A stretch of 64,000 nucleotides of DNA from Ypsolopha sequella (lineage: Eukaryota; Arthropoda; Insecta; Lepidoptera; Ypsolophidae): NCBI GenBank assembly GCA_934047225.1, contig OW204005.1, forward strand, positions 18,918,396 to 18,982,395. Reading direction: 5' to 3'. The position numbers were made by a program, and so were the translations under genes. How positions within the stretch are numbered: position 1 is the stretch's first letter; every line of letters starts with the position of its first letter. Positions 30,958-61,188 of this stretch are shown here, piece by piece. The notes under the pieces are model-generated. The model did not search any database. It was not told the origin of the DNA and was given only the letters and a program-made list of their open reading frames with translations.

Positions 30958-31831
30958 ATGGGGTCTGTTTTTTATGGTTCTGGGAATGAAACTGCTGACA
31001 CGGTAGATGGAGAACATGACGAGGTATTTAATTTTGAAATTTCAAGGCGAAGCAAAAATTTTGACAAATCTCATGATATCGAAACAAAAGAAAGTGATTC
31101 GGGTGACGAAGACACAATTATGAATCATGCTGATATAGATCCAATAACACATGATAAGGATTATAGATTTTCGTTCAATAATCCAAGAAAGACTCTAGAA
31201 AATATTCAGCCTAGAGGTAACGTTGTTAGAGATGCGATGATGTTTGCTCGACCGGATCTTTCTGAAGACGATGATGGCTTAGAAGATGTTCCTAATGATA
31301 ATGATGAAGCAGTACAAAACAATGCAGTAGCTGCCAACCCTGTAGTAAATGACAATAATTCTGAAGAAAGAGACGACACTACGTCACCATCATCGGAAGT
31401 TGCATCATCCTCGAATCCTTCGATTCACGAAGATGGTATCTTAAGTTCTAAACCTACCGAAGAACACGAAGAAGAAGCCGAAGAAACTTTTCCAGAACAA
31501 GCAAACATCGTCAACTTACCGAAGGAGCTCATACCTATCGCAGACACTGGCAAAGGCAAACAAGTTGAATATGTTACTGACAAAGAGGTCAAATTTATAC
31601 GTAAGAATGATAGAGCCCTACCTAAACATGCTGAAACATATCAACTAGAAACTTTTGAAAAAAACGCTATGATTATTTTTAACCAGGAGAATATAGTTGG
31701 ATATAACAAGCCTAGAGAAGGAACCAAACAAGATGTTGATACTCTTAACAAAACATTTTTGCCGTTCGGTTTTGAAGTCGATCTTCACAATGATTTTCGA
31801 AGGGATGAGATTTTTAAAGAGTTGGATAGAT
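30958..31831 (+). CDS. caspase A exon 1: acidic prodomain and start of p20
   Basis: Starts MGSVFYGSGNETADTVDGE. Ends GAT AGA T/GTAAGT (phase 1). The last 67 residues align with the beginning of effector caspase p20 (FEKNAMIIFN...FGFEVDLH). Confidence 0.85.
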
Positions 31832-34800
31832 GTAAGTTTTGAAAACAATGTTAAGCAACTAAAAATCCATAGTTTTTTTTTTGTCAATTTGTTGCATAAG
31901 TATTCAAAACCCCATCATTTCTGCTGTGCATATACAGGAGAGTTTTGGGATGTTGTGTGTTAATTAATCAGCCTATATCGATGCATTTTGGTAGGTATTA
32001 AGCATTATCTTTGCCACGTCATTATCTCTATGTCATCCATTGTCCTCTACCAACCTGACGCTATCATCGCACCAACGTGCAATTGGCCAGCCTACACCAG
32101 TCCACTGTCCCACTTCCTATCTTACCATTTGACACATCTCGTGAGTCTACCAAATTATGTTTATCTACCTCATTTTTGCCAGTGAAACTAACCATAATCC
32201 CCACACGTTTCCAGTCAGCAAGCAAAACTTCACTGACTACGGCTGCATTGCGGTCGTGGTCCTCACCCACGGATCCGACATGGGCTCTCTGAGGGCCAAG
32301 GACAGGAGGTTCTACGAAACTGACGTCATCAACTACTTCAGGACTAGTGTCAACGATAACCATACGTTAGTCACCAAGCCGATCCTTATAATAATTCAGG
32401 TAAAGTTTTGTGCAGGGACCAGAATAATTTATTTATTTACGTTTATTGTACAGTGGAGACCACATCAAGCTATACACTTGCAGTACGACATTAGCCCCTA
32501 CAGAGAAGAATATAAGATAGGTACAAAGTCCAATGTGTCTTACTTGATGCGGTCTCCACTGTACATTTACACAAATTCATGAAAAAGGACATTGAAATAT
32601 TTCACAGTGTACAAAGGAGGCACTTATTGCTAGTAGCAATATCTTCCGGGCAACCTTTGGGTAAAAAGAAGATAAGAGAAGAACATAGAGAAATATTTTA
32701 TAAAAACACAATATTGGTATCAAGTTATTGTAAAAATATAAAGCCAAGCTCTATTTACTTGCATTTATTTCGAGAAATCCTCGAAAAACTACAAACAAAT
32801 GTATGTCCATTATCTCTAAAACTGGTGGACTGAAAAATATGAAAAAATCATGGTAATATGTACTTCCGTAAAGACTACAGGAAAAATATAGCGGTTGAGA
32901 AATTCACGAAAACAAAATGACAAAATTCCTAAAACTTTCAAATTACGGAACCCTAGGTAGGAACGCGAATCTGACTCGCAACCCAAAAGATTTATTTCTA
33001 ACTTTTTTTTAAGAGAGTTTATGTCTTTTTGGGACATTGTTTTCATTATTTGGGTATATCAATTAACCATTATTTGTCTATGATTTCTAGGAATTTTAGA
33101 CATTAATGTTAAATGCGATGTGTTATTGCTTATAAAAAAGTGGTCTGTATCTGTATCTACTCATCTGTCATTCATCTGTCAAATCAGTCGGAAGCAAATT
33201 ATTATATCTTGATAGCAAAGGACACATTTCTAAATAGCCATTTCTCAAGTAACGTCACACGAAGGCGAATGGAAGTTGCAGCTTTTTCATAAAAAAATAT
33301 TCATCATGAGGTTTTTTAGACCACAAGTTCTAAAATACGACTTATTGAACCTTAATCTCGAAATGGTTTTCGAAATCTATGCAAAATTTTTTTTCGCTAC
33401 CTGTCATTTATACACCATGACAGGAACATAAAATCTAATAACATTTTCTAATGATGATACTGACCAATTTTCCCATAGAAATTACCTTCGCAATCGGTGA
33501 AGAAAATAATCTAACAGCTGATTCAAAGAAAACGTGACTGGGCGGTGATGTCACACGGTCGCTAACAAAGTTTTTGGTTTTTTATTAAAATCTTTGTTTT
33601 TCTACAGGTTTTATCTGGGGGCACGGCAGTGCCCCCGCCGAGTCTCGCAAAAAAACGCGGAACGGCCGTACCATCCTTTTCTCGAAGCAACTCACGGCAC
33701 TTTCAACCCCCCTGTATCTTCATTGTGGGTAAAGCTAGAAGTCTGAAATTTCAGTTACCAAGAGTACTTACTGATCCTACTTCTGACCCCAAATTACAAG
33801 TTTGTACCTATATTTGATTACGAAATATCTCAAGTCAAATTTCCCTTATTTTGTCACTGACTGACTGACACATCATCAAAAGTCTAAAGGTGTTCTAGCA
33901 GGCCTACAAACTTAAAATTTTGCATGCGGTTAGTGTTAAGTGTACATTGCAACAAAAAAATCTAAAAATATTATTTAGGGTTCCTTACCCAAATCTGTGT
34001 TTTGGGTAAGGAACCCTAAAAGACATTTAGTCTATTTAAGAAGAGAAATATCAACATTTCGTAAATAAGTCGCTATTAAACCGGATAAGTGCAAGTCGGA
34101 CTCGCTCACGAAGGGTTCCGTACTACCATCACACAATATGGGTACGAAACCCCAAACCATTATGGTAAATATCAACAATAAAGATGACATAGCAACATAA
34201 AGGCGACAAAAAACAAGGCGCTAAAATGGTAGCGCCTGACAAACAAATCAGCACCTTTTGAACAAGGAACTCTAACATTTATCTGCCCAAAATTGTTATA
34301 TTATAAAGATAGAGCTGAAACAAATAACGTCGAATAATTAGACCCCCCTTGGATTTCCATTTCATATTATTATTTGCCGTGATAGAGGACAAAGTAACAT
34401 ATATTATGTGCAAATATTTACGCGCTATATTCACCTATAACGGCTGAAGCTGTAGACCCCTGTGAAAGATAGATAGACAGCGGAGGCTTAGTAATAGGGT
34501 CCCGCTTTTTCAAAGATGACTAATATTAATACAGTCGTTTATTGTTGGTAGGTAACTAATTAGGAAACAATTGATGATACATTTGTTAAATAGGTGCTCC
34601 CATACTAACTAAAATGAAAAGGTGTTTCCATACAAACTAAAATAACAGACTTGGCTTTACATAAGATCTCACAACTTTTTACGGTGGAAAGATTGCATTG
34701 CGAGACTTGACATTTTTGTACATTTTATGTTTTTGATGGGATAAACCTTACTCCGAGATATTTTGATGACTTACCATACTAACTTGCAATTTGTAATTTC

Positions 34801-37800
34801 GTCAACTCTCCGCTATCCCACTTTCCCATCCCATCCCATCCCATGCGAAAGTTTGGATGGATGTATTAAGTTTGTAACTTCTTTACGCCCGCCGTAACTA
34901 CAGAACCGATTGAGCTGAAACTTTGCACAAGTGCAGTTCTAAACCTAAAGTAAAATATAGGTATGTGTCGATTTGATTTAACACGTTTTAACCTGACAGG
35001 ACTAAACTTAATTTAAGTGTTCTGTTTTTTTCCTTCTGTATCGAAAAGACAAAGACAAGGACGCTTCTTTATCTTGGTGGGCTCGGTTTCCGCACCTAGT
35101 CTCTTACTTGGACCTTGTGCGTGGAAAGTATGGAGCCGGCTATTCCAGCCAGCCCATCTCTCGCCAGAATCCCAAGAGGCGACCTAGGTCGCCACAGGAT
35201 TGGCGAAGCGTCCCCGGTTCGGGTTTTTCCTCGAGGACCCCGATCCTTTAGGCCCCCGTCCTTTAGGACCCCGATCCTTGAGAACCCCGATAAATTTGAA
35301 AAAATGCCAATGTCGCTTAAAGTATAATCGCCAACAAAAGTGTTAAACTAACAAAATGAATAATCAGCAGTTGCTAATAAAGTGGCTCTTATTTCAGCGC
35401 CTTTAGGTCCATAATGCAGCTTTTAAATCACGCGTACTTTTTACTTTATTTAACTGCACTAGTGCTTTTACATTTACCTTTTTTTAATTCCAGCAAAGAT
35501 TTGTACATGTAAAAAATTGTAAACACAGTAAGTACATTGTAATGATTTTTAACGGATGTTGGATCTTTGGTATAAATGATAGGTTTAGTGAAAAATAATC
35601 GTATTATTATTGTTTCATTATAACTAGTTAGTGGCCAGGTAGAATTTTTAACAATGGTTCCACTTTTCTGGGTCGTCATTAGTATTTCTAGGGATCTAAA
35701 ATATGGAATAACATGAAATTATATCAGCTTAACTCTAAACTAGGTTGCATTAACCAAACTAACACATTATTTAATTAATGTACTTTGAAGCACTTTTTGT
35801 ATCGATGGTACACCAGCATGATAATAGCAAAATTAAACAAAAAAAAGATAATCAAATTTATCGGGGTTCTCAAGGACCGGGGTCCTAAAGGACGGGTGTC
35901 TCGAGGACTGGGGTCCTCAAGTATGAACCCCCCGGTTCACCGAGGATCTTAGCCCGTTGTGTGCTGACGCCTACGCAGTCTATCGTCACGTGGGTCGGCG
36001 TTTCTTTGGTCTCCATACAAGCTCTGCATAGAGGACTGTCCGTCAGACCTATATTATAGAAGTGTCTGCTGAGGTTACTATGTCCCGTAATTAGCCTTAC
36101 CATCATGCGAAGGTTCAGTCTATTGAGACGAAGTAGTTTCTTTGTCAGGCGACGGTTCACGGTGGGTAGAACCGCTTTCGTCTGTCTACAAGTTGTCATG
36201 CTTGCCCATCGCTCAGCATGTTTAGAGCTGGTTCTCTCACGCAGCCAGGTTCGATATCTGGTTAAAGGCCAGGGAACCAGTAGCTCAGCACCTACCGGTT
36301 CCATTTTTGCACCTTCCTTTGCCAGTTCATCTGCCGCATCATTGCCCAGCGATCCGCTGTGTCCTTTTATTCACTGGAGGGTGATTTTATTGTGCCGACT
36401 TACCTCTTCCAGTTGATTTAGACACTGTAGTATTAGCCCAGAGTTAACAATAGTCTTGCTTAGGGCTCGTAGTACCGCCGTGCTGTCAGAAAGTATACGA
36501 ATGTTGAGGCCTTTAACTTCCCTTCTGGGCACCGCACTTGTGGCCAGGATAATTCCTACGCATTCCGCTTGGAATATCGTGTTGAGCTTACCCAAGGCTG
36601 TTGACCTGTGAATGTTAAGTTCAGCTGAGTACGCTCCGGCCCCAGTACCCACCTTTGTTTTGGATCCATCCGTATATATCCTTACCTCATGGATATTAGA
36701 GTGATCTGCTGTTTCCTCAAATAGTTGGACGTTGTACTGTCTGTTAAAGAGATGCTTTTTAGGTATTCTGTCACACGGTGCGTCCATCATGGGTTGGTGG
36801 GACACGGCCAACTCAAGAATGCGCGTGTGTGGTGCCCTGTCATCGCTTTTCCACTGTCCAGCCGCCCTGAGTCTGAACGCTGGAACCGCCGCCTCCTGTT
36901 GTATGAACAGGTGTAGCGGCGGGACGTCCAAATGGTCTCAAGGGCCGCGGATGCCGTGGTTCGCATGCAGCTTGTAACAAGGACGCTTAAAATAATGTTA
37001 GTTCTGTCAAATAAGTTAAGTCGTGTTTCACCGAATCAACACTATTGGCTTCTTTATATCAAATCAGTAATAAAATACTTCTTTTGGAAACGCTTATTAT
37101 ATTTCCTTTGTGAGTATTTGTGTAATATCCAAATAAATCATCCCTTGATAATGCCAAAAAGGCGAAACTAGTTGGGAAATATTTACAATTTTCTTACATA
37201 TCCATGAGTTCATAGTTCATGTAATTCAATAATTTTTTTCATTATTTGTTTTTTGTTTGAAAGTTGATTTCAAGGATTTACATCAACGTATGAAATTTTG
37301 TTTTTGTTGTCAGTTTGATAACCAAAATTTCAAAAACAGTTCGTCCTAAATGCCATCAATTTCCATGATAAGATTCGTAATGATTTTTTACAACTGACAC
37401 TTTTCAAAAATTTAATGATGCCGTTAGCTTAATGTTGTCTCATTCGTATACAAATGAAGTTACAACTTACATAATTTGCATTTGCCATTCATAAAAAAAA
37501 TGCAAAAATGTTAGTACTGAAATTTGAGTTTCCTTCAAATTCTTTATAGAAAACGGCAATTTCATATGTAAAGGTTTAATTAATAATAGGTTGTGAAATG
37601 GTGAAACAAAACAAGTGTTTCATCCATGATGATGTTTCACCAAGAGCCGACAATCGCGAATATTAACCTTCTTCATGTGGTCTTATTAATTGTTTTATTC
37701 TATTTTTTGAAATAAGCGTCATGTATACTACCTAATATTCATGAGACGCAAGTTGTGCAGCAAATCCACATCTTGTATACCAGTGTTTCCCAATCCAATC

Positions 37801-40800: not shown

Positions 40801-43800
40801 TTTATAAAGTGTAATTAATAATTGTCTTGAGTCAAGAAACACGCCATATTTTTTTCAAATTTTTACCATCTACATTGACGGAACTGAATCCAATGCAAAA
40901 CTGATGTTTAGCATAGTGGAGCCCCTTAAGTGTTTGACACCCCTTCCGTAGTACTTAAAATGTACAAAAGGAACCTTTATGGTGAGACTCCGTTGTTTGT
41001 CCTTCCTTCCGTATGTCACAGCCTCATAACTTTAGCACCGTTAAAGATAAAGAAATTTAGCACAAAAATTGCAGTAATTTGCCCACATATCAAGGTGTAA
41101 AAGAATATGAAAAATTTGAAATTGTTCTAAATATTTCCAAAACAAAAGTGAGAAAATTAAAAAGTATTGTCATAAAAATACAATATGGGTATCAAATTGT
41201 AGATATAAAAAGTTGATAGTAAAAATATATACTTTTACTATATTTACGCACTGGTTTCGAGAAATCTTTAAAAAACCACAAAAATATGTATTTCCCCCAA
41301 CTTATCTCCAAAACTGGTTGACCGAAAAATATGAAAAAAATGATGATCATAGATCATAACTGGCCAATTACAGGAAAACTATAGCAATTAAAAAAATTAC
41401 CATAAATGAAAAATATAAAAAAAGAAGTAAAATAAATGAAAAAAAATATTTTATAAAAATACAATATGGGTATCAAATCGTAGATATTAAAAATTTCATT
41501 GTTAAAATATATAGTTTGGCTATATTTAATTTCATCTATTTCGAGAAATCCTTGAAAAACCATAAAAATTGTATGTCCCTCCCCCTTATCTCCAAAACTA
41601 GTGGACCAAAAAATATGAAAAAGATCATGGTAATATGTGTTAACGTAAAGATTACAGGAAAAATAAAGCGGTTGAGAAATTCACGAAAAAAAATTACAAA
41701 ATTAATTTTATCATCCACAATACGGAATTTAAAAAAAACTTGCGAGCTCAATTACTCCCGGGTTTCGGCAAAACAATGTTTATTGCTCTGAATGATTTTT
41801 TTGCGTCTTGAAACTTTCAATTAACGTAAAATAGTTAACCCGAGTATACGCCGGCAGCTGGCAACCAAACGATACCGCAATGTAAAATTACACGCAGGCC
41901 ATCTTCTTTCATATATATATATTTTTTTAAGTATTTTCTTTATTTTCAAAAATCTTAACCTAGTTACAAAAATGCACAATCAACAAAAACCCACAGGGTT
42001 TATCAGTGATTGCGGAGTTCGGTACTTATATTAAATTATAGTAGCAATAGGTAATACAGGTTGCTTGGTAATTCGACCTATTCCTTTAAAGGAGTTATAC
42101 GAGGGATCATTTCCAACAAATAATGCCTATCAACTAGGGGTCGAAAATGATAATTTTTTTCAAATAAAACACGTCGATATTTCAAAAATTACAAAATAAA
42201 AAAGGTTTTCTTTCCACCTTTTAATTCTGAGATTATGGGAATTCAGTGCACGTATTTTTTTTTATAAATGGTCACTCATCTATCATTGATCAGAAATATA
42301 ATAAATAAGTGCTGAGAGAGGAATAGTTATTTTTAAATTATTTATTTTTGGTTATTAGTCTGAAAGTTTGAAAAATAATATAAAAACCTTCGTAACTCGG
42401 AGACCATTCATTTTCGACACCTAGTTGATATGACTTAATTCGTTGGAAATGATCTCTAGTATAAGCCCTTTCAAGGAATAGGTCGAATTACCAAGCACTC
42501 TGTATACTTATAAAATTATAATAATAATTTCATATTCGTGGAATTTATAAAAAAAAAATACCTTATACAATGATATTTTGCTTTCATTAAATAAGATAAC
42601 ATTTCAATACAAGATACGACATTTATTTCAATGGTTTAAAATGGTTTTCTTTGATTGTGATAGTAAGTCTAGTGCAATGTTAAATTGCTCTAAGAACAAA
42701 CTCTTGGAATAAATAAAGATTTGTCAGACAAAATCACATTCTCTCAAACTTACGACATATTTCAAGAAAATATATTTTCTCGATCGAAGAAATCCTTTTT
42801 ATCCGTGTAAGAGGATAGATATATCGGGACGATTTGTACAGGTATATTTTTCATTATTCACATCTGCATCTCTTTTCATGCTTTTATTAATGTATAAAAA
42901 GGTAAAATTGTTAAAATAAAAGTTAAGTAAAATTGTTAACCACTGCATGAATAAATAAATTTAATTAACTATATAAATTAAAATGTACGATATACCTATT
43001 AGAATAAGTTTTATGCATGGAAATAGCAAAGATTAGATTATTTGTACATACCTTATTTAATAATTATTATACTTAAAGTTATATTTTAATACTAAAATTA
43101 AGAATATTGTTACACCCAATGGGTAAAATTACATTGAGCCATAAGTATGTACATATAACATCTAAAACTGTCATTAAATATTAAAGATAACTTTTTTTTA
43201 ATTTTTTTTTATTCAGTTTATATTATATATTTATATAAAAACACTTATTAAAATAATAATTTGTATCTAATTCCACTGACGCCGACTGTATGTCGAAATA
43301 TATCTAAAACTGACATGTAATTTAATGCAATAAATATATTGATTGATTGATTGATATTCCCAGGCTTGCCGTGGCACAAAAGTATCGAAAACAAAACTGG
43401 TGGGACAACCTGGCACCGTCAGAAAAGACACAGATGACGATGAGATTCAGCCATATACGCTTCCCGTTGAATCTGATATGCTGGTGCTCCATAGTACTTA
43501 CCCAGGAAAAATATCTCATAGGTAAACAAACTTCCTTTCATCCACTTTTGTGTTCCGGCACGACATCATGAGAAGCTGTACCGAAAGTAATGAGCGGTTT
43601 TCCAGACTGACCTTGATCAAGCCTTCAGAGGTAAACATAGATGGCGTTACCCTGCTTTCAAGTGTCAAAAAACTAAGATTATTTTTTAATCTGTGGGCAG
43701 CAATATTTTGTGGGCTAAAAATTTCAAGTCAAGTGTCAAACCCAACAACACCTTTCACAAAGATATTCTTATTTTGTTTTGTATATATGGTTTTGTTTTC

Positions 43801-45417
43801 TACTTGGTGTTTCATTCAACTTTGAGCACGGTCAGCCGATGCGTTGTGGCTAATTGTAAAAATATAGGAACACACAGTTTCCCTAAGAATTCACAACGGA
43901 AAGAACAATGGATCTTAGCAATAATACATGTAAGGCATGGATTAATTAAAAAGAATCTAGTGTTGCCAAAACATTTATTGACACTTTTAATACAGGCTAC
44001 GCCATCTCTCGAGTCGTTCGGTACTACTTTTTCTTTTTTAATTTGATTTTGAAAACCCCTCATTCGTACACTAACAGCGCGTTCCGCATGACGCTAATAG
44101 TGCCAACACTACCATCAAACTTCTCACGTTCATCAAGTCGTTTCGAAAGGACAATGGCGTCCATCACTTAAATTTATGATCCATTCGGAACGCTTTTGAA
44201 CGCAACATGGACGATGACAGTTGAAATTGACAGAATTTGTAGGAATTTGTTTTAGGTTACGTGAATACAATGGGTATACTACTTTACTAGGTCCAAGAAA
44301 TTATTTCCTCTTACTTGAATTTTTGAATCATAGTTTAATAATAAACTCTTATGCTCCGAATAAATTCTTTTTAAAACTACCGCCAGCTGGCTGTCACTTT
44401 ACATAGATCAAACGCTCTAAAGCATGGACGATGATACGATGATAGCACAACATGGCGTCGTTCATGATGTCATCTGTGACGTCATAGCGACCATTGTAGG
44501 GCTATCGTTATCGCGCTAACACTGATCGTCGACGCGATAAAATCGATTATGTCTTTATTCGGAACGCGGTGTAATTGAGTACGGGTTCAAATCCCGTAAG
44601 GGTAATATCGTTCGGTCTGCACGTTAAGATGTGTTTCTATATTTGTGCTTTAAGTACGCTGATAGAGCTAACCACTGTAATATCGTATAAAACAAGTTTG
44701 TACTTTGACTTGCATTTTTGCAATACACGCTCCATACTCGAAAACACCTCTGACAATCGAGGATTCATGTCATAACGATAACTATGTTCTAATGGCGTCA
44801 TTATGTAATCTTGCAGAAACGATATCTACGGCTCCTGGTTTATTCAAACCCTCTGTGACAAGATCAACCAGCTGTCACCCAGCCAAGACCTGGACTCCAT
44901 CATGACTGCCACCAAAAGAGCCGTTGCCATTGACATGGAACATTCCTCGTGGAACAGAAAGACCAAAAAATACGAGATCAACAAACAAATGCCAATCATA
45001 ACGTCAACTTTGATAAGGAAGCTGTTTTTCAGGAGATATGATGGCTTTATTCCGAAATCGATAATGAGAGACTTTGAATCTCAAATTGATGGTTGTAGCC
45101 ACACCAGTAGCATAGATGATGCAGAATCTGTGACAAATAAGGAGCGAAATACTAATTGCAATTGCAGTTTAATACATAGATCCAGTTATTTTTGCTATCT
45201 GAAGGGAATGCTTCGGCATTTTGTTGAAGATCCCCGCAATTCCCAAGATAGTATGGCAAAAAGCTATTTGAGTCTGGCTTGCACGTACAAAGATAGTGCC
45301 GACTTTCATAACTCAAAGGAAGAAATGTCAAAAATAATAACGGAACATTTAAAGAAAAATGCTAAGCAACTTGAGTATTACAAGTTTTTATACTTGAATG
45401 ATTTTGCCAAAACCTGA
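30958..45417 (+). CDS. caspase-family cysteine protease, copy A (605 aa, four exons)
   Basis: Exons 30958-31831, 32215-32399, 43364-43521 and 44817-45417 splice in frame (phases 1, 0, 2) with GT-AG junctions. Residues 1-224 are an acidic Asp/Glu/Ser/Asn-rich region without a visible CARD or DED. The large subunit starts near 225 (AMIIFNQENI), with P1-pocket Arg253 in KPREGT, catalytic His310 in VVLTHGSDMG and catalytic Cys355 in QACRG. Asp375-379 in the linker (DTDDD) could be cleavage sites. The small subunit has YTLPVESDMLVLHST, Arg406 in SHRN, GSWFIQTLC and INKQMPIITSTLIRKLFF ending near 477. Caspases normally end here, but about 128 residues follow, including a helical-looking segment (528-605). 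The start was chosen because it aligns with copy B; an upstream in-frame ATG at 30862 is not shared. All catalytic residues are present, so it is probably active. The orthologue name is not assigned. Confidence 0.85.
32215..32399 (+). CDS. caspase A exon 2: catalytic His
   Basis: Acceptor CGTTTCCAG, then SKQNFTDYGCIAVVVLTHGS. Ends KPILIIIQ at CAG/GTAAAG. A nearer AG upstream would introduce a stop in this phase and is excluded. Confidence 0.88.
32451..32561. mobile_element. 111-bp TA-flanked MITE, copy 2
   Basis: Near-identical to 27161-27271 (CAGTGGAGACC...GGTCTCCACTG between TA dinucleotides). Starts only about 50 bp after the exon 2 donor of caspase A. Confidence 0.8.
32562..33599. repeat. 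caspase A intron 2: dispersed AT-rich repeat copy
   Basis: About 32670-32950 is a copy of the CTTATCTCC/ATATGAAAA family, followed by AATTACGGAACCCTAGGTAG. The remainder to 33.6 kb is anonymous, without ORFs of interest. Confidence 0.4.
33600..34530. repeat. composite of lepidopteran-type repeats
   Basis: GGGGGCACGGCAGTGCCCCC is a GC-rich palindrome at about 33617. TTAGGGTTCCTTACCC and its inverse follow near 33.98 kb, and then AAGGGTTCCGTACTACC and ACAGCGGAGGCTTAGTAATAGGGTCCCG. The latter motifs recur in SINE/LINE-like repeats of Lepidoptera from memory. No gene. Confidence 0.35.
35221..35920. mobile_element. Mutator-like (MULE) non-autonomous element, 700 bp
   Basis: Terminal inverted repeats of about 85 bp built from repeated GAGGACCCCGATCCTT-type units, flanked by 9-bp duplications CCCCGGTTC (35212-35220, 35921-35929). 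Long TIRs and a 9-bp duplication suggest the Mutator superfamily; no transposase is present. It interrupts the LINE ORF. Confidence 0.5.
35930..36931 (-). pseudogene. LINE ORF2 C-terminus: RNase H and Cys-rich tail
   Basis: RNase H signature YTDGSKTKVGTGAGAYSAE, then FQAECVGI and LSDSTAVLRAL, then GHSGSLGNDAADELAKEGA. A single TGA replaces the Trp expected before IKGHSG. The tail has LNRLNLRMMVRLITGH and CRACMETKETPTHVTIDC. The frame is cut at GEPG by the inserted element and resumes beyond it (TLRQSCGDLGRLLGFW...GWLE, about 35210 to 35130). Confidence 0.75.
37046..37772. other. anonymous intron sequence
   Basis: AT-rich part of caspase A intron 2. No ORF, inverted repeat or repeat family was recognised. 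Confidence 0.4.
37781..39030. mobile_element. hAT-type element with CAGTGTTTCCCA ends
   Basis: Left end CAGTGTTTCCCAATC, inverse right end CAGTGTTTCCCAGTC; GCCGGTCCGCAG also recurs inverted (ACCGGTCCGCAGG is near the right end). Flanks TTGTATAC and CTGTATAG match at 6 of 8 positions. No transposase; a 500-bp hairpin occupies the left half. Confidence 0.55.
37805..38310. repeat. 500-bp palindrome inside the hAT element
   Basis: Arms of about 240 bp, centred near 38057, match closely; for example AGACAATCTGAATTCGAT and its inverse, and GGTGCCTATCATCAAAAACA three times. RNA from either strand would form a long hairpin. Confidence 0.75.
38941..39085 (+). repeat. 74-bp tandem duplication at the right hAT end
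   Basis: AAGACTGGGAAACACT..CTGT then CACGGGTAATCCC..TGAAC occurs twice in tandem, so the element's right end plus its flank has been duplicated. Confidence 0.65.
39086..39989. other. anonymous intron sequence
   Basis: Includes a GC-richer stretch at 39.66-39.95 kb (GCTAGCCGGAGACGCAGTGG) that may be part of a SINE leading into the tRNA-like sequence. No gene was recognised. Confidence 0.3.
39990..40061 (+). tRNA. tRNA-like sequence, probable pseudogene or SINE head
   Basis: A cloverleaf can be drawn: acceptor CCTCGGT/CCCGAGG (one mismatch), D arm GCGC/GCGC, T arm with GGTTCAAATCC. The anticodon stem has a mismatch and position 33 is A rather than the near-universal T, with TGT at the anticodon position. 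These defects argue against a working tRNA. It lies in caspase A intron 2. Confidence 0.35.
40062..41129. other. intron sequence with a repeat fragment
   Basis: About 40.92-41.10 kb contains GAGACTCCGTTGTTTGTCCTTCC, related to the repeat at the right end of the window. The rest is AT-rich without recognised features. Confidence 0.3.
41130..41760 (+). repeat. two copies of the CTTATCTCC/ATATGAAAA repeat
   Basis: Copies at about 41130-41420 and 41440-41760 share ACAATATGGGTATCAAAT, AAAAACCA.AAAAAT and ACAGGAAAA.TA in the same order and orientation, so the repeat is locally duplicated. Confidence 0.5.
42057..42502. mobile_element. TA-flanked foldback MITE with about 100-bp arms
   Basis: The left arm contains GCTTGGTAATTCGACCTATT and GGTCGAAAATGA; both recur inverted in the right arm, with TA at each junction. 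Tc1/mariner-type MITE. Confidence 0.7.
42503..43264. other. anonymous AT-rich intron sequence
   Basis: No gene recognised. TATTTCAAGAAAATATATTTTCTCGATC near 42.76 kb recurs with variation at 47.37 kb (TTTCAAGAAAATTTTGTTTC), so part of it is repetitive. Confidence 0.3.
43265..43355 (+). mobile_element. retroelement 3' tail with (GATT)n next to the exon 3 acceptor
   Basis: ACTGACATGTAATTTAATGC then AATAAATATATT(GATT)n is typical of a LINE/SINE 3' end. It stops about 9 bp before caspase A exon 3, so it has replaced much of the normal acceptor region. Confidence 0.5.
43364..43521 (+). CDS. caspase A exon 3: catalytic Cys
   Basis: Begins exactly at the Ala-Cys-Arg-Gly of the active site and ends KISH with AG/GTAAAC (phase 2). 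The acceptor CCCAG has a short pyrimidine tract because a GATT-repeat retroelement tail ends about 9 bp upstream. Confidence 0.88.
43830..43930 (+). pseudogene. THAP-domain exon remnant
   Basis: Reads VSRCVVANCKNIGTHSFPKN then REQW-like KEQWILAI, the first half of a THAP finger (C-x4-C, F-P-K, W). The expected start codon is ACG instead of ATG. A GTAAGG donor follows (ACAT/GTAAGG). It lies in caspase A intron 3, within a repeat that ends near 44.57 kb. Confidence 0.45.
44076..44610. repeat. possible inverted-repeat element and tRNA T-arm fragment
   Basis: CGCGTTCCG near the left and CGGAACGCGG near 44.56 kb form an inverted pair. Immediately after, ACGGGTTCAAATCCCGT is a perfect tRNA T-arm-like stem, perhaps a SINE remnant. 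Confidence 0.3.
44817..45417 (+). CDS. caspase A exon 4: p10 and C-terminal extension
   Basis: Acceptor TAATCTTGCAG; reads (R)NDIYGSWFIQTLCDKINQ, then the p10 end, the linker and the helical segment SSYFCYLKGMLRHFVEDP ... YYKFLYLNDFAKT and stop. The 3' UTR has no exact AATAAA within 100 bp. Confidence 0.88.
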
Positions 45418-47925: not shown

Positions 47926-47998
47926 CTATTGTTATAAGTTTTCTTAGCTAATATTGTATTTTAGCTAAGACAACTTTTAATATTAAGAAATATATATA

Positions 47999-48692: not shown

Positions 48693-48780
48693 GTCTAGAC
48701 CAAACACAATATTAACGATTCAAGGCGCAGATTTGTGAGAGTCTGATGAGGAACAGGGCAGGCAGTAGTCAGGAACATGT

Positions 48781-48899: not shown

Positions 48900-48986
48900 A
48901 TCTAATCCACTACTTAAATCATTTCTTCAATTTTAGGTAGGCTGCTAAAATAAAAATATTACAAACTATACTAAATTAAAATATAT

Positions 48987-49202: not shown

Positions 49203-49431
49203 TAGCCCCCCCCCCCCCCTAAAATTGTAGGTTTGTACTTAAATATACCTCCTAGGTAACTATTTTATAACACTAATAAAAGTCTTCTTGTACGAGTTCC
49301 ACTATTTTATTGACTTGATTATTGCGACTAGTTTCGTCTATTTGACATCGTCGGGCTAGTGGGAATAGGTAAACAGTAAAACTAGTAGGTAAACTATTTT
49401 ATAACCTACGTACTACAACAAGTTGAAGATC

Positions 49432-49631
49432 TATGACGTCACCCCGGTAGCTCGGCTTTATAGAAACTTATCATTTGTGGGCTGCATTATCTATATTGAT
49501 AAAACAATATTGTACAATTTGCAGCTAAAGCAATGGTCGAAACATTGTAGTTATAACACAATACTTATCGAGAACTAACGCGCGTGATATATATATTTTT
49601 TTCGGTTGATAAAACAAGTTTTTTTTATTTG
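49432..49631 (+). promoter_or_regulatory. caspase B core promoter and 5' UTR with three GATA-type sites
   Basis: TTTATAGAAA at 49458 stands where copy A has TATAAAAA. GATA-type motifs TTATCA (49468), TTATCT (49487) and TGATAA (49497) have the same 19- and 10-bp steps as in copy A. ACACAATACTTATCGAGAAC is conserved closer to the start codon. Confidence 0.55.
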
Positions 49632-50481
49632 ATGGCGTCAATTTCCTTTAGTTCAGGGGATGAAACTGCTGAGACAGCAGATGGAGAAAATTACAAGGAA
49701 TTTAATTTTGAAATTTCAAAGCTAAGTCAAAATGATGACAAATTTCAAGATATCGAAACAAAAGAAAGTGACGAACACACAAACATGAATAGTGCTGATA
49801 TTGATCCAAGTACACCGGATAAGGATTATGGATTCTCGGTCCAAAATCCAAGAAAGACTTCAGCAAATATTCAACCTGGAGGTAACATTGTTAGAGATGG
49901 GGTGATGAAAGCGCGACCAGATGTTTTTGAAGACAATTATGACTTAGAAGATGACCGAGCAGCAGAAACTAATAAAGAAGCTGACAACACCGTAATAAAT
50001 CACAATAACGCTGGAGAAAGAGATGCAACTGCGTCACTAACATCGGATGTTGCGTCATCCTCAAATAATTTGATTCACGAAGAAGGTATCTTAAGTTCAA
50101 GACCCACCAAAGAAAACGAAGAAGAAACCGACCCATTTTTTCCAGAACAAGCAAATATCAGCAACTTGCCGAAGGAGCTCACACCTAACGCAGACACATG
50201 TAAATGCAGTCAAGTTGAAAATTTTGCTGAACAAGAGGTTAAATGTACACGTTATAATCATAGAGCTCTACCTAAAGATGCCGAAACATATAAATTAGAA
50301 ACTTTTGAGAAAAACGCTATGATTATTTTTAACCAGAAGCATATAATTGGATATAAAAAGCCTAGGGATGGAACCGAAAAAGATGTTGAGATACTCAAAC
50401 AAACATTTTCGCAGTTCGGTTTTGATATCGATCCTCACGATGATTTACCAAGGGATAAGATTTTTGAAAAGTTAGATAAAT
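49632..50481 (+). CDS. caspase B exon 1
   Basis: MASISFSSGDETAETADGEN start, acidic prodomain, then FEKNAMIIFNQKHIIGYKKP and FGFDIDPHDDLPRDKIFEKL. Donor AAAT/GTAAGT, phase 1. Confidence 0.85.
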
Positions 50482-52458
50482 GTAAGTTAATTTGAAAACA
50501 ATCTTAAGTAACTAAAGGTCCATTGTTTTTCTTTCGTTAATTTAATGCATAATGGGTGTAGACCACGGAGAAACTGCTGGTGATATAATATTTTCATCGA
50601 ATATTATTTATTTGCTTTTAGACTTCTTTCTTATGATACTCTGGAAATCTCTATGATTTTGTTTGAATTGGATTATCATCGTTTGTTCTGATTTTATGTT
50701 CAATAGCTGTAGTATAGCTAAACTAATCTTCGTCAAATAGTAGAATTTGGCATTTTCTAATTTGCCTCAGCATATAGTAATTCTGTTAGAAGTATTCGCT
50801 CGGCTCCCAATATGTACTTACATGTAAATCTAACAGGCTCCTCCTCGCTCTGCTCGTCGTCGCACCTATTTTTCACTTTTTGGGGAAAGACTTTCGATTT
50901 CGGCTCTATAAAAAAATTACGAAGTCATTTAACAAACGGCGCGTATTTTTCAATTAGCATGTTTTCAGAAACTGACGACGCCGTTTGTAAACAGCTAAAT
51001 TTTACTATTTGCCTGCCACACCCATACTCACACGCGCTGGGTAGGCGGGTTGGTAAGCTGTGCCAAAACCCTTGCAACAGTAACGCTGGTGCCCGTCACC
51101 AATTTGTTTTGTTTTGGCTCGGCAATTGGAGATGGATATACCGCCATCAATCGGTGCCCGGCAAGGTGAGCTACCTGGTTTTGCCTGTTTGATAGCTGTC
51201 CTCTTACGCTCCGGGAGGTTTGCAAGTGAGATGGTGGTAAATACCTCCATAGTCTACCCTGGCACCAGCTCTACCACCTATAGTGAGTTCTGGGATGTGA
51301 CATGTCAATTAAGCAGGCCTCATCATCCATTGCTCTTTATTATCCATGCTACGCCATTACTTACATATCATCCATTGCTCTTTAGCAACCTGAAGGGCTT
51401 CTGGCCAACCGACCGAAACCACTATTCTACTGCCCCAAGGTATCTCTTCCTGTCTTACCAGAACTGACACATCTCGTGATTTTACAATATTTTTGTTTGT
51501 CTAGCTTATTTTTTCCAGTGAAACTAACCACAATCTACTCGCTTTTCCAGTCAGCAAGGAAGACTACACAGACTACGGGTGCATTGCTGTAGTTATCCTT
51601 ACTCACGGATCTGACCAGGGCTTGCTATGTGCCAAGAATGGATGGGACGAGGAATTCAACGAAACTGACATCATCGACTACTTCAGGACTAGCCTCAACG
51701 AAACGCTGGTCACTAAGCCGATCCTTTTTATAATTCAGGTAAAGTTGTGTGTGGGGCCCAGTTTTATCTCGGGGCTGACTGCATTGTGGCCTAGTGGTCG
51801 AATGTTGGCTAACTAATCCAGAGGATTTTAACCCCATGGGGGCAATGTGTGTGTTTAGTAAGAGATTAGTAGAAAGGTATTAGTTTCCTTATTTTAAAAG
51901 GTTATTTTAGCTTAGTACTGATATTCAAGGAAACTGTTTACTGTAACCTAACAAAGTAATAAAACTATCTTTTAATTGAATAATATTTATTTCTTAGTAA
52001 GTACAAAATTTTGTATTCAAAACAGATGTTCGAAGTGATGACCTCGTTGTGCGATACAATGTATGGGAATGTTTAATGTCAAAATTTTGGATACTCCTCT
52101 TTTGATTTTCAAAAAGTTAATGATGTCATTCTACTGATTAGGTAACGTACTTTCGATATTAAGTAGTTTAAATTTTTTTGATATCTGTAATAGTTATGGA
52201 ATAATCGCCTGGTCACACTTAACGATTACACCCTGTATAGTGTATACTATTTCCATAAGTTGCCTACAGTGAAATCTAACTTAATGGAGCCATTGCCTTC
52301 ACCCTGATGGCTTACTAATCCAGAGGATTTTAACCCCATGGGGGCAATATGTTTGGTTTGCTTCGGAAAGTATATACTATTTCCACAATTTTGCACCTCA
52401 ATTTGCCTACATTGAAACTGAACTTAATGGAGCCGTTGCCTTCACCCTGCCTCAGAAA

Positions 52459-52524
<66 letters not shown>

Positions 52525-55500: not shown

Positions 55501-58500
55501 TGGCTTACCAATCGCTCCTTTCTGCTATGGTTATTGTGTAACCATCCACTGGGTCTTTTCTCATGGCATTTTCTATAAACGATGCGTCGTCCACTGGTAA
55601 TTCGCTCGCTGCACTCCACTGTAGTCGCTCGTCACCTGGTACACCACTCGCTGCACTCCGTTGTAGTCAATGCGTCTTATTTCACTGATTCACTATTCAC
55701 TGCACTGTAGTTCACTCGTGCATCATTTTCTAGTCCGCTATCTCTTCACTCGCTCAGTAACGCTTTTATGAAAAGAAAGAGAACTCTTCCGTTCAAAAGA
55801 TAACAAGTATTGAGGTCAGATTCAGATCAGACTCCAGAGTCACGTTACTCCTGACCGAATCCGTATGATTTTTCCTTCTTTAATGACAAAATTCTCTACT
55901 ACCTAACTTTGAAGAGAATTTGAAATACTAGCTAGACATTATTATGTAATTTTAGCAAGTACTTAGCATAGTTGCCCAAACGTGCCAATGAGGAAGCCCT
56001 TAGCAAATGCTGCGCCCTGATTGGCCCATTTAAATTGGATCAACAACTGGTCAAAAGCAAAAAAGGTGGATTTGTATAAAAAATCCTTAATTATTGTTAT
56101 TACTCATCGTGACACTTGTGGCTCCGAACGGAGCTACATATTTATGGTCAGCTGGCATTGGATCAACAAAAGACAGCCGGATCAACAAGTGAAAATGGAT
56201 CAACAAATTACTACCTATACGGCACGTTGGAGCCACAAAGTGCCCAAAGGGATATCTATATATATATATATATATGACGGCGCTTTAATATTTCCCTTGT
56301 TGATTACATAAGAAAGACATTTCAGTCTTTAATGTAACACCGAAAACTAGAGTGTGGCAACACTAGGAATAAAAAAGGGAGAGAGGGTCTATGACGGGCA
56401 GTGTTGTTATTGATACGGCAATTGCCGTAATATACGGCATTCCATGACTTTTTTTCAGATTATACGGTATACGGCAGGCTTTTCACTACCGTATTATGAA
56501 ATACGGCAATTTGGCCTTTTGTAATAATTTAACCTTATAAAGTGTTTTACGCTGAGTGTAATGGAACGATTTGTTTGTATTTGTTGGTATGATTTTAGTG
56601 ATAAGGTCCTTCCGCTTCTCAAACATTTGTAACCGGTCAATTGCCACGCATCGTCAAAAATGAAACTGACCTGCAGCAAATTGATGACGATTGGAGAAGG
56701 CTTCCGAACATAAATAAATTTTCGGACTTGGAAATCGGCTCACTCAAAGCACATGAAAATTCATGAGACCACAGACTGCAAAAAATTATCAGAATTTGTT
56801 CTAGATACTCTTTGTCTACCGCATAGCAATACAGATTGTGAGCGAATATTCAGCGAGGTAAATAACATCAAAACGAAATTACGAAATAAGCTAATAACAT
56901 CAACGGTAAATGGTGCTCTATTAGCAAAACAAGCAGTTAGAAATCAAAAAGACTGCACAAAATTTCAGGTTTCTCGTGACATGTGCGACAAAATGAAAAA
57001 TAAAGAAAAATATGCTTTACAGAAACATCGTCGAGCGTCGAAGAAATCGTACCATCAATACGAAATCTTTATGGTGAAGATATTGCAGAAGAGATACTAT
57101 GATTTTTTTTTTATAAATGTAATAATACGGCAATTTTGTGTTTTTTTCCCTTAAATACGGCAATTTGAAACTTTAAATACGGCAACTCGAAATTTTTCAA
57201 TGGCAACACTGATGACGGGCAGCTGTCAGAGGGTCGATGACGAGCAGCGGTCAGAGGGTTTTTGGTGGCTTTTTCAAGTAAATGGAAAAAGACGGGGTTT
57301 TGGAGGAAGAACGATTGAATACGGGTGTAGCACGCGCTAAGTTTTCGGTGGAACATTATTATAATTTGAGGCCATAAGTTGGAATACGTAATTGGTTCGA
57401 ACTTTGTGATTTAAAGCGTTTTCAAGTGATTATTTATAAAGTCCAACTAGCAAGACTGATTGAAAGGAAACCTTTCTTGTATTCTCCTCACCCGACTACT
57501 CACGCCACATTGTAGTTCCGTAGTAATGAGAGACGACGAGGATCCGACTATTACTCGAAAAAAACACATATATATATATATATAATATACAAGGTGACTT
57601 TTTGATCATCGTCCAAATTCATACTGGAGGCTTGGTAAGTGATCGACATCATGAATCGATAACAATTTTTGTGAAATTCGTGTTATGAAATTTCGACATC
57701 CCATAGTAATTCATCCCCAGTCCTGAGTGAATCACTATGGGAAGTCGAAATTTAATTTTATGAATTTCACAAAAATTGTTATTGGTTCATGAAGCAGATC
57801 ACTTACCGAGGCTCAAGTATGAATTTGGACGATGTTCGCAAATTCACCTTGTATACTATTTCCACAATTTTGCACCTTCATTTGCCTTCAGTTAAACTGA
57901 ACTTAATAGAGTCATTGCCTTCACCCTGATGGCTTACTAATCTTACTAATGTGTCTGGTTTGCTTCGGAAAGTATATACTATTTCCACAATTTTGCACCT
58001 CAATTTGACTACAGTGAAACTGAACTTAATGGAACCGTTGCCTTCACCTTGAAAAACACTGCAAAGTGCAATCCCCAAAAAGCGTGTACATTTGTACCGG
58101 ACGTACAATGATAAGGATTACCCCCTATCACGTAGGAGATAAAAATCCTCGGTAAAAAGGGAGTGTACGATTGTTGACTGTTCTATTGATATTCCACCCT
58201 TGGAAAGACCTTTGACATCCGCTCGGAGATATAGGTATGTCGGGACCAGGGCTGCCACCTCCAATCGAGTGTTGCGCGCAACTCCAATGTAAAAAAGCGC
58301 TAGATTCCGCTAAACATACAATTTTATAAAAAGCGCCAGAAGATGCGCTATTTATATGTTGTATATTGGTGGCCTTATTGATTAGCTGATTGCATTTGAT
58401 TGGCTTTTCAGTAAAATACGTCATTTATAGAACCGTAAAGAATTATAAAAAGAAGATAATGAAATTTTGTACCAAATTAAATGAATTATCATCACTGAAA

Positions 58501-61188
58501 CAAAATACATTCCAAAATAGCACTAGATTTCCCAAAATTATTCCGAAAAAGCGCCAAAAATAATGAAACAAAGCTCATTTAGAAATAGCGCTAGATTTTC
58601 CGCTAGGCGCTAAAAACGAATTTTGAGCGCTAAGTGGTCAAAAAAAGCGCTAGATCTGGCAGCACTGGTCGGGACGATATCCTTTATATAACATCTGTAT
58701 ATTTTTGCATGCTTTTATTTCCAGGCTTGCCGTGGCACAGAGGTATCGAAATCAAAACAGGCAGGAAAACGTGGCATCGTCAAACAAGACTCACACAAAG
58801 AGAAGGATCAGTCATACACGCTTCCCATAGAATCAGATATGCTGGTGCTGCATAGTACATACCCGAAAAAAGTGTCTCATAGGTAAACAACCTTCCTTTC
58901 ATTTTTCGGCATGACGTCTTAAGGGGCATTCACGTCTGTATTTTTCTCAAGGCTCATACAAAGGGTAAAAACTGAATGTAAAGCCAACAGCGTATTTATA
59001 CTATAAATTAAAATAACCAGCCAAGTGTGAGTCAGGGCTCGCTCTTTTAGGATTCCGTATATATGACCAATTATTTAATGCTCTAATTCTGCTGCAAAAT
59101 TAAGTTTGTTGAGTATTCAGGGACGTTACCCTAAAAATACATTATAAATCGATGTTTTTAGTATTTGATGTTTAAATACAGCACATGGTATGGTACTTGC
59201 CCTTGTCCATCAAGGGCTGCAATGCTGACCGCGCTGTGTAGGCTACACTTTCGGCCATCATAAGCGCAGCCACCACCAAAGTCATTACAGACCGCGGCAG
59301 TAATGTACTAATAATAGAAAGAAAGAAAACCTTTATTTGTTGCTACACAAACAGAGAAAATAAAAAAAAAAACAAAAAACATTATACAAAAAAAAACCAA
59401 AGAAAACATAAAAGTAGTAATAATAATAATGAAACATTTAGAAGAAATAACGAATGTAGCAACAAAAAGGTCATTGGCTCAGCATAAAGCTCCATGAACT
59501 TACGACGCTGATTTTCAGGCAAAGCCTAAATAATTATCATAAGTATTATTAAATGTAATAAATATACATGCATAATTATTACTACATAGATATTGTGCAA
59601 GACATAGATATTGTGCATAAATACAACACGAAATTTATTATGTCAATGTCATTGTAGTGGACTGTATTGAAACTTCTTTTAGATTTTTCTTCTTTTATTA
59701 TTCTTCTTGTAATGCTCAGTACTGAATGACAAACCGCGGGTTAGGCCCGCCTTATATACTTGCCGTTTTGCACACGGCACTAATCTTATATCTATTTCTT
59801 TCTTACATATATGTGCATCCTTGTCTAAGGGTTCTATCTAGAAATCTCGTCATAATTTATTTATTCTTATAACTAGACATAATGCAATATTTTTCCCTAA
59901 TTCTATATGTTATTCTTAATCTATTTACATTTATTTATTTATTCTAAACTCATTATTTTTATGTTAAAAACGCAAAAAACATTTTGTTGTGTCTGTACGG
60001 TAACGCCGCGCTAGCAAACCCTAACTCTTCGTTAGTTCCTTTTCGTTGCCTGCAGAGGGCGTGTGAAGTTGACCTTTGCTGCACCCGTCGCTAACAGTCA
60101 TTATGTAATCTTTCAGAAACGAGCTCCACGGTTCCTGGTTCATTCAAACCCTCTGCGACAAGATCAACCAGCTGTCAGGGAGAGAGGATCTGGAGTCTAT
60201 CATAACTGCTACTAAGAGAGAAGTCGCCATTGACATGGAACACTTCTGTCGCAACAGAAAAACCTGTAAGTACGAGATCAACAAACAAATGCCAATCGCT
60301 ATGTCCACTTTGATAAGGAAGCTGTTTCTAACGAAATACAAAGGCTGTATTCCGAAATCAATCACGAAAGAATTGGAATCGCAAGTTGATGGTTGCTGCC
60401 ACAATAATAGCATAGATGAATTGGAAATTGGAATTGGAAATCCTGGTCCATCCCATACAGATTGGTCCAGTTATTTTGACTATCTGAAAGGAATGCTTCG
60501 GCATTTTTTGGAAGACCCTTGTAATTCAGAAGATAGTATAGGAAGAAACTATTTGAATCTGGCTAGCACATTTAAAGACAGTGCCAACTTTCATGAGTCA
60601 AAGAAGGAAATGTTAAACTTAATGACGGAACATTTAGCGATAAATGCTAAGCATTTTGAATATTACAAGTTTATATACTTGAACAATTTTGCCGTCGCTG
60701 TTAATTTGAAACACTCCTCGTTGAACACAGAAACCAATAAGAATGAGATCAACAAACAAATTCCAGCCACAATGTTAACTTTGATGACGAAGCTGTTTTT
60801 CTGGAGATACGAAAGCTGCATTCCGAAATCGATGTTGCTACAACCACCAACTTGCCTTTCTAAGTCTGAAACGCAAGATGATGGTTGTAACCACAATGGG
60901 AGCATAGATGAGGAACGAATTGGAAATCCTGGCCCATTCCATCCAGATTGGTCTAGTTATTTTAGCTATCTGAAAGGAATACTTCAACATTTTCTGCATG
61001 ATCCTTGTAATTCAGAAGATCATATGGCAAAAAGCTATTTGAGACTGGCTAGCACATTCAAAAACAGTGCCGAGTTTCATGAGTCAAAGGAAGAAATATC
61101 AAAAATAATATCGGAACATTTAAAGAAAAATGCTAAGCATCTTGAGTATTACAAGTTTTTATACTTGAACGATTTTGCCAAAATCTGA
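49632..61188 (+). CDS. caspase-family cysteine protease, copy B (755 aa, four exons, duplicated C-terminus)
   Basis: Exons 49632-50481, 51551-51738, 58725-58882 and 60117-61188 splice in frame with the same phases as copy A. Residues 1-216 are an acidic, low-complexity N-terminus. The caspase core has Arg245 in KPRDGT, catalytic His302 in VVILTHGSDQG, Cys348 in QACRG, Arg399 in SHRN and GSWFIQTLC. The inter-subunit linker differs from copy A (KQDSHKEKDQS). After the p10 core, the segment 435-591 (p10 end, linker, helical domain) is repeated as 592-755. The second unit has the p10 tail (NEINKQIPATMLTLMTKLFF) but not GSWFIQ. No frameshift or stop is present across 2.27 kb of spliced coding sequence. 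Probably an active caspase with a doubled C-terminal module. Confidence 0.85.
50482..51550 (+). other. caspase B intron 1
   Basis: About 1.07 kb against 383 bp in copy A. The last 300 bp align with copy A intron 1 (CATCATCCATTG, CCAGTGAAACTAACCA). The extra part holds an open minus-strand frame at about 51005-51250 with no recognised motif. Confidence 0.4.
51551..51738 (+). CDS. caspase B exon 2: catalytic His
   Basis: Acceptor CTTTTCCAG, SKEDYTDYGCIAVVILTHGS to KPILFIIQ, donor CAG/GTAAAG. One codon longer than in copy A. Confidence 0.88.
51739..52460 (+). repeat. tandem repeat units in caspase B intron 2
   Basis: TATACTATTTCCA..A, TTGCCTACA.TGAAA and CTTAATGGAGCC.TTGCCTTCACC occur twice at 52235-52460 and again twice at 57852-58055. 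AATCCAGAGGATTTTAACCC also repeats. About 130-bp units. Confidence 0.5.
52457..52520. repeat. (AT)n microsatellite
   Basis: About 30 uninterrupted TA repeats. Confidence 0.95.
53100..54240 (+). pseudogene. broken gene with tyrosine-recombinase-like C-terminus and acidic/Lys-rich tail
   Basis: An acceptor at about 53345 (AACATTTAG) leads into LATFLGHDMQVHASNYRLPI, which resembles the LGH...H..Y end of Crypton-type tyrosine recombinases. It then runs QTVQKGFVGSKLLEIEK, a long Lys/Glu/Asn/Asp-rich stretch interrupted by several frame changes and stops, and NKWSSDEVEAVMQH near 54.06 kb with EPVLHKLTWMQINTYI after it. The order (GH..VH..YRLP, charged linker, W.DEE.AV) is seen from memory in repeat-derived eukaryotic proteins. 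It lies in caspase B intron 2; upstream catalytic parts are absent. Confidence 0.4.
54241..55019. other. anonymous AT-rich intron sequence
   Basis: Part of caspase B intron 2; no ORF, inverted repeat or known repeat seen. Confidence 0.4.
55020..55780. repeat. degenerate minisatellite-like array
   Basis: Variants of CACTGATTCACTCGCTGCACTC, CTGCTGTAGT.GCTGCGTC and CATCATCCACTG recur every 30-60 bp, some inverted (GCGGAGTGGAG, CAACAGCTACAGCGG). Derived from a short Ser/Gly-codon-like motif; no frame is maintained. Confidence 0.6.
55981..56290. repeat. repeat with GTGGCTCC inverted pair and (TA)n
   Basis: ACTTGTGGCTCCGAAC and TTGGAGCCACAAAGTG form an inverted pair; GGATCAACAA occurs four times. 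A (TA)n run is at about 56251-56275. Confidence 0.45.
56399..57211 (+). mobile_element. hAT transposon, internally deleted (813 bp)
   Basis: Ends CAGTGTTGTTATTGATACGG and inverse CAGTGTTGCCATTGAAAAA, flanked by perfect 8-bp duplications ATGACGGG (56391-56398 and 57212-57219). ATACGGCAA occurs repeatedly near both ends as a subterminal motif. Carries the C-terminus of a hAT transposase. Confidence 0.85.
56645..57040 (+). pseudogene. hAT transposase dimerisation-domain remnant
   Basis: LQQIDDDWRRLPNI precedes a frame break. Then KLSEFVLDTLCLPHSNTDCE, RIFSEVNNIKTKLRNKL and a C-terminal GALLAKQAV. LPHSNTDCERIFS...KTK.RN.L is the hAT C-terminal dimerisation signature. The catalytic core is missing. 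Confidence 0.8.
57590..57851. mobile_element. TA-flanked foldback MITE (CAAGGTG family)
   Basis: CAAGGTGACTTTTTGATCAT left and CACCTTG right; GTCCAAATTCATACTGG inverted internally; an inner pair around GAATCACTATGGGA. Confidence 0.75.
58247..58667. mobile_element. hAT-type MITE with GCGCTAGA subterminal repeats, 421 bp
   Basis: CAGGGCTGCC and inverse CAGTGCTGCC ends, flanked by perfect 8-bp GTCGGGAC. Repeats of AAAGCGC(T/C)A and GCGCTAGAT.CCGCTA occupy both halves. Confidence 0.8.
58725..58882 (+). CDS. caspase B exon 3: catalytic Cys
   Basis: Acceptor TTATTTCCAG, ACRGTEVSKSKQAGKRG to YPKKVSH, donor AG/GTAAAC. Same length (158 nt) as copy A exon 3. A hAT MITE ends 57 bp upstream. Confidence 0.88.
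58883..60116 (+). other. caspase B intron 3
   Basis: Similar size to copy A intron 3 (1.23 against 1.30 kb). Only the last 25 bp (GTCATTATGTAATCTT.CAG) are clearly shared. Holds a minus-strand LINE 3' end and AT-rich sequence. Confidence 0.5.
59305..59530 (-). mobile_element. LINE 3' end, minus orientation
   Basis: On the minus strand: GCTGAGCCAATGACCTTTTTG, then AATAAAGGTTTTCTTTCTTTC. The (TTTC) tail and oligo(T)-like stretch mark a truncated retroelement. Confidence 0.45.
60117..61188 (+). CDS. caspase B exon 4: p10 and two C-terminal modules
   Basis: Acceptor TAATCTTTCAG, (R)NELHGSWFIQTLCDKINQ. Module 1 spans 60223-60693 and module 2 spans 60694-61185. Both contain a p10-like tail, IPKS, NPGP, W-S-S-Y-F.YLKG, and end YYKF.YLN.FA. 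Confidence 0.88.
60223..61185 (+). repeat. in-frame tandem duplication within caspase B exon 4
   Basis: Unit 1 is 471 nt, unit 2 is 492 nt. They start at equivalent GTCGC codons (VAIDMEH / VAVNLKH). The join replaces the last residues and stop of unit 1, whose natural end in copy A is FAKT. Divergence between units is substantial, so the duplication is not very recent. Confidence 0.85.

What the first reader, a model, noticed from the sequence alone, without database searches (positions are those of the whole stretch)
30958..61188. Tandem pair of long caspases with a C-terminal extension beyond p10
Seen: two four-exon genes with matching phases encode 605 and 755 aa. Catalytic His and Cys and both P1-pocket Arg are intact. 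Known: caspases normally end a few residues after the p10 strand represented here by STLIRKLFF. Inference: the 128-residue tail in A and the doubled tail in B form a lineage-specific module, perhaps for recruitment or autoinhibition. The extension and its duplication are not something I recognise from described insect caspases.
Basis: partly seen in the sequence, partly recalled or inferred. Interest (0 to 1): 0.88.

Follow-up and report, generated by a model that had tools for sequence, protein, structure and literature searches.

The report
Caspase-4 gene pair, one tail doubled
Two neighbouring insect genes encode moth-type caspase-4 proteases whose long tail is already known for that family, but in the second gene the tail domain is present twice, an arrangement not seen in the other family members examined here.

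Summary
In detail: two head-to-tail four-exon genes, A (605 aa) and B (755 aa), with GT-AG introns in phases 1, 0, 2 and intact catalytic His/Cys and both pocket Arg. [quoted passage not shown] A tail profile built without A or B finds it in 64 of 99 related proteins (46 of them built the profile) and in none named as fly, beetle, mite, grasshopper or fish. AlphaFold predicts a four-helix domain. What is new is B: residues 435-591 (end of p10 plus tail) recur as 592-755 inside exon 4. None of the 99 other proteins has two tails; a genome search found the tail only at these three places. Both B tails keep profile scores that simulated neutral drift erodes, although dN/dS alone does not exclude neutrality. 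Most likely role, by inference: a C-terminal docking or regulatory domain, made bivalent in B.

The parts
30958..31831 (+). Gene A exon 1: prodomain and start of p20
   Evidence: caspase match E 1.4e-5
32215..32399 (+). Gene A exon 2: p20 with catalytic His310
43364..43521 (+). Gene A exon 3: catalytic Cys355 and p20/p10 linker
44817..45417 (+). Gene A exon 4: p10 and single C-terminal tail, with stop
45031..45414 (+). Tail of A, residues 478-605
   Evidence: tail profile i-E 1.2e-22 on residues 530-599; coordinates
49632..50481 (+). Gene B exon 1: prodomain and start of p20
51551..51738 (+). Gene B exon 2: p20 with catalytic His302
58725..58882 (+). Gene B exon 3: catalytic Cys348 and linker
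60117..61188 (+). Gene B exon 4: p10 and two tail domains, with stop
60223..60693 (+). B repeat unit 1, residues 435-591: end of p10 and tail 1
   Evidence: tail profile i-E 7.2e-21 on residues 518-588
60694..61185 (+). B repeat unit 2, residues 592-755: copy of the end of p10 and tail 2
   Evidence: tail profile i-E 2.2e-21 on residues 680-749

Best explanation
A and B are tandem duplicates of Lep-Caspase-4, which the 2011 survey relates to fly Strica/Damm. Shown here: an intact caspase active site, a place in the Caspase-4 clade, and a C-terminal tail homologous to the family's tail, which is predicted to be a small four-helix domain. Also shown: in B a segment of exon 4 (last part of p10 plus tail) is present twice, copied at about the time of the A/B split (order not firmly resolved; shared loss of the CxC motif favours a copy made within B). 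Inferred: the protein is made as a zymogen and cut in the linker; the tail stays attached to p10 and acts as a docking or regulatory domain for a partner or a location, since no death domain is recognised in the prodomain. B would then be a bivalent version. The extra copy of the last p10 strand in B is probably a passenger of the duplication.
For:: residues 220-605 of A match 54 proteins; 48 carry a source name, each of a species that I know as lepidopteran, and 49 of 54 are covered over 95% or more of the query, that is, into the tail. A and B are sisters (SH-aLRT 96) inside a 65-row Caspase-4 clade (99), apart from two other caspase genes of the same genome (quick tree); a profile built from 46 members without A or B finds one tail in A, two in B, and the tail in 64 of 99 proteins, 18 of which were not in the profile; four helices at 423-496 of Bombyx Caspase-4, block pLDDT 81-96 over residues 421-490; the 2011 description of the long small subunit. 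B's tails score 78.1 and 79.5 bits against 83.2 for A, while neutral drift of 0.15 substitutions per site gives medians of 47 to 52; three tail matches in the genome, all in A and B.
Against: No transcript, protein or functional data. dN/dS between B's two units is 0.74 with a bootstrap interval of 0.46-1.21. B lost the CxC motif in both tails. A search with B residues 465-755 alone found nothing at E <= 0.001 among 599 candidates, so tail homology rests on the profile, on position and on full-length alignments. The whole Bombyx model is of middling confidence (mean pLDDT 70.1, pTM 0.54), so where the tail packs is unknown; structural matches of the tail were only middling. Some proteins inside the clade have no detectable tail, so it is not indispensable.
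Confidence: 0.8

Rival explanations
1. The second unit in B is a neutral by-product: after an internal duplication the stop simply lies further downstream, and unit 2 has no function.
For: dN/dS between units 0.74, interval 0.46-1.21. The p10-end part of unit 2 is 55.6% identical to A, against 80.6% for unit 1. Tail 2 alone would stay free of stops in 6.0% of neutral runs at 0.15 substitutions per site.
Against: All of unit 2 (164 codons) stays free of stops in 2.8, 0.4 and 0.1% of neutral runs at 0.15, 0.30 and 0.33 substitutions per site. Tail 2 scores 79.5 bits; from the three present-day tails, neutral drift keeps 71 bits or more in 1.6-8.2% of runs at 0.10, 0-1.0% at 0.15 and none of 500 at 0.20 (runs with stops left out). 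Tail 2 is closer to A (64.5%) than tail 1 is (59.5%).
Confidence: 0.15
2. B's second copy of the last p10 strand competes with the partner subunit at the dimer interface, so B is held monomeric or acts as a dominant regulator of A.
For: The duplicated segment begins upstream of the terminal p10 strand; that strand lies at the caspase dimer interface (recalled knowledge).
Against: This is the least conserved part of unit 2. The model of B exon 4 alone (mean pLDDT 68.0, pTM 0.38) says nothing either way: it makes the copied strand helical, but also the genuine one, because p20 is missing. Whole spliced B was not modelled.
Confidence: 0.07
3. The tails are untranslated or intronic sequence and the open frames are chance.
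For: No RNA evidence here.
Against: Tail homology in 64 of 99 related proteins, including a Manduca Caspase-4 record (P0038) from a species whose Caspase-4 cDNAs were obtained by RACE (PMC3141678 section 9), and the simulations.
Confidence: 0.01

Closest known systems
Lep-Caspase-4 (e.g. Bombyx mori caspase-4, P0020; Courtiade et al. 2011, PMC3141678)
   Same: Caspase domain, long prodomain without a recognised death domain, tail of about 100-140 residues after p10 in most members (lengths 102-167 in 49 rows)
   Different: A and B have a 4-residue insertion before tail helix 1; B lacks the CxC motif and carries the p10-end plus tail unit twice
Manduca sexta Caspase-4 duplicates (P0038, P0040; PMC3141678 section 9)
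   Same: Duplication of Caspase-4 within one species; the paper does not state the arrangement as tandem
   Different: P0038 and P0040 each have one tail
Pectinophora gossypiella 876-aa protein (P0001)
   Same: Lep-Caspase-4 enlarged by internal duplication
   Different: Whole caspase module present twice, one recognised tail; may be a fused gene model
Drosophila Strica/Damm
   Same: Related to Lep-Caspase-4 at about 20% identity according to PMC3141678
   Different: The same paper presents the long small subunit as unique to Lep-Caspase-4; the relationship was not tested here

Membership tests
Caspase (peptidase C14A) | C14 domain with catalytic His and QACxG Cys | tested here: met
   Exon matches to PF00656 in both genes; residue positions; A aligns to solved caspases at E down to 1.5e-36
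Caspase (peptidase C14A) | Two P1-pocket arginines | tested here: met
   Arg253/Arg406 in A, Arg245/Arg399 in B; 49 of 50 and 47 of 50 rows have Arg there
Caspase (peptidase C14A) | Proteolytic activity after Asp | not testable with these tools
   Needs expression
Lep-Caspase-4 | Falls in the Caspase-4 clade | tested here: met
   65-row clade, SH-aLRT 99; A+B 96 (quick tree without bootstrap, 83 of 98 domains used; the tool warned of long branches outside A and B)
Lep-Caspase-4 | Extended small subunit (tail after p10) | tested here: met
   Tail profile once in A and twice in B
Lep-Caspase-4 | Long prodomain without a recognised death domain | tested here: met
   In Pfam the exon-1 frames give only the caspase match, plus a sub-threshold SUKH match in A; a diverged death domain is not excluded
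Lep-Caspase-4 | Characteristic, not defining: conserved tail cysteines (three in the 2011 set) | tested here: inconclusive
   CxC is in the tail of 44 of 50 rows including A; absent from both B tails and from P0042, P0047, P0048, P0051. Which three cysteines the paper meant was not seen

The most novel reading that the evidence does not exclude
B is a caspase with a duplicated C-terminal regulatory domain that has become a bivalent scaffold or a built-in regulator of its tandem partner A, through the second tail and perhaps the extra p10 strand.
Probability: 0.15. Interest if true: 0.6.

Novelty: new variant of a known kind. Interest (0 to 1): 0.33.

Why it matters
Lep-Caspase-4 is a poorly understood lepidopteran caspase: its function was called unclear in 2011 (PMC3141678) and a 2016 paper, citing that work, says it is undecided whether it is an initiator or an effector (PMC4792459, passages). 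A tail that is predicted to be a discrete helical domain, and that has been doubled as a unit in one gene, looks like a separable module that can be tested by deletion. Beyond that it is an ordinary gene-family expansion.

Tried and rejected

Print: literature searches listed no paper whose title or abstract start describes a doubled tail; one search listed 20 of 39 and one search listed 20 of 38, 'duplicated c-terminal' occurred in none of the 20 listed, and only open-licence full texts are held. Papers: PMC3141678 seen as abstract, passages and sections 6 and 9, not its supplements; PMC4792459 as passages; all others as search listings only.

Rows dropped: one search aligned 47 of 54 proteins (without P0001, P0021, P0039, P0041, P0049, P0053, P0054) plus A and two forms of B; the profile used 46 of these rows, P0052 and the window rows being left out; the tree used 83 of 98 domains.

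Full report
What is there. Gene A (30958-45417) and gene B (49632-61188) are head-to-tail four-exon genes with GT-AG introns in phases 1, 0 and 2, encoding 605 and 755 residues. Exon frames match the caspase domain in both, the catalytic and pocket residues are intact, and all six exon joins fall in gap-free stretches of alignment to a Helicoverpa relative, P0004. DNA comparison of the two genes gives six matching pieces of 74-82% identity, lying at the exons and their near flanks except for one 55-base piece in intron 1. In the 867-Mb genome the caspase family matches at 10 places, 4 of them in this window. The tail matches at three places only: A, B tail 1 and B tail 2 (5 candidates were scored and the tool calls its counts lower bounds).

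What it is. A residues 220-605 match 54 protein clusters. Of these, 48 carry a source name, each of a species that I know as lepidopteran, among them Bombyx caspase-4, Lymantria caspase-4 and Manduca caspase-4-1b; 49 of 54 are covered over 95% or more of the query, so into the tail. A quick tree of 83 caspase domains (of 98 extracted) puts A and B together (96) within a 65-row Caspase-4 clade (99), apart from two other caspases of the same genome that I read as Caspase-1-like and Dredd-like. The species is not given; the tree and the company of names make it a moth, a butterfly or a close relative.

The tail is known. Courtiade et al. [quoted passage not shown] They also reported Caspase-4 duplicates in Manduca (section 9). 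A profile of the tail core built from 46 family members, without A or B, finds it in 64 of 99 related proteins: the 46 that built it and 18 others. It finds it once in A and twice in B. The 35 without it include records named as fly, mosquito, beetle, mite, grasshopper and fish caspases, but also lepidopteran records that are short, and wax-moth proteins inside the clade. AlphaFold of Bombyx Caspase-4 with 45 family sequences gives four tail helices (423-441, 446-457, 462-482, 489-496), block confidence 81-96 over 421-490, after a low-confidence linker; the whole model is middling (mean pLDDT 70.1, pTM 0.54).

What is unusual. B carries the segment from the end of p10 through the tail twice: residues 435-591 and 592-755. 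The single tail region of P0004 aligns to the first unit as part of the main alignment and to the second at E 1e-19. None of the 99 other proteins has two tail domains. Both B tails lack the CxC motif that A and 43 of the 47 relatives in the alignment keep (44 of 50 rows in all), which suggests that the copy arose within B after it parted from A. Divergence does not settle the order: dS is 0.30-0.33 between the units, against 0.42 for the A/B caspase domain and 0.44-0.52 for A against either unit, but 0.25 for the A/B prodomain. Third-position patterns lean the same way (25 against 17 and 15), while the p10-end part does not (7 against 17 and 12).

Is the second unit maintained? Against: dN/dS between the units is 0.74, bootstrap 0.46-1.21. 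For: unit 2 stays free of stops in 2.8, 0.4 and 0.1% of neutral runs at 0.15, 0.30 and 0.33 substitutions per site, although tail 2 alone does so in 6.0% at 0.15. Both B tails keep profile scores of 78.1 and 79.5 bits, against 83.2 in A, whereas neutral drift of 0.15 lowers the median to 47-52 bits; at 0.10 drift 1.6-8.2% of runs still reach 71 bits. These simulations start from present-day sequences, a simplification. The p10-end part of unit 2 has drifted more than that of unit 1 (55.6% against 80.6% identical to A), so the tail rather than the strand seems to be what is kept.

How it probably works. Shown: intact active-site residues, a family tail, the tail doubled in B. Inferred: zymogen cleavage in the linker (four Asp in A's linker segment, two in B's) and perhaps at a recurring prodomain site, with the tail as a docking or regulatory domain joined to p10, bivalent in B. 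In 50 aligned rows two positions that I assign to the S2 pocket from recalled caspase-3 numbering are mostly Pro (32) and His (37) instead of aromatic, which suggests an altered substrate preference across the family.

Verdict. A real pair of genes, a tail that is ordinary for its family, and one new variant: the duplicated tail unit in B.

Noticed in passing
P0044 (Tuta absoluta), residues 571-589; P0046 (Phthorimaea) ends similarly: A gelechiid Caspase-4 ends in a hydrophobic stretch after the tail that could be a membrane anchor (Kyte-Doolittle 1.52 in P0044; P0046 fell under my 1.4 cut-off; the same scan also flagged P0054, P0088 and P0099, which have no tail).
   Followed up: partly
P0001 (Pectinophora gossypiella, 876 aa): Two caspase modules in one predicted Caspase-4 protein, with one recognised tail; a real fusion or a fused gene model.
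   Followed up: partly
P0052, P0068, P0071, P0072, P0073 (Galleria, Achroia): Wax-moth proteins inside the Caspase-4 clade have no detectable tail: lost, diverged, or short models.
   Followed up: partly
A residues 92-99, B residues 89-96, and many family prodomains: A loose D-[AGS]-x-[ML]...P pattern recurs in the prodomain (41 of 99 proteins plus A and B; one match is an eel caspase, so some are chance). It could be a processing site.
   Followed up: partly
window 19502-22423: A 973-codon open frame with endonuclease and reverse transcriptase domains, a non-LTR-type retrotransposon.
   Followed up: no
window 29883-30260: Open frame matching baculovirus FP protein domain 2 (E 2.4e-10) just upstream of gene A.
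   Followed up: no
window 56714-57154, 36371-36937 (-), 43690-44046: A hAT transposase fragment in intron 2 of B, and sub-threshold RNase H and THAP matches in introns 2 and 3 of A.
   Followed up: no
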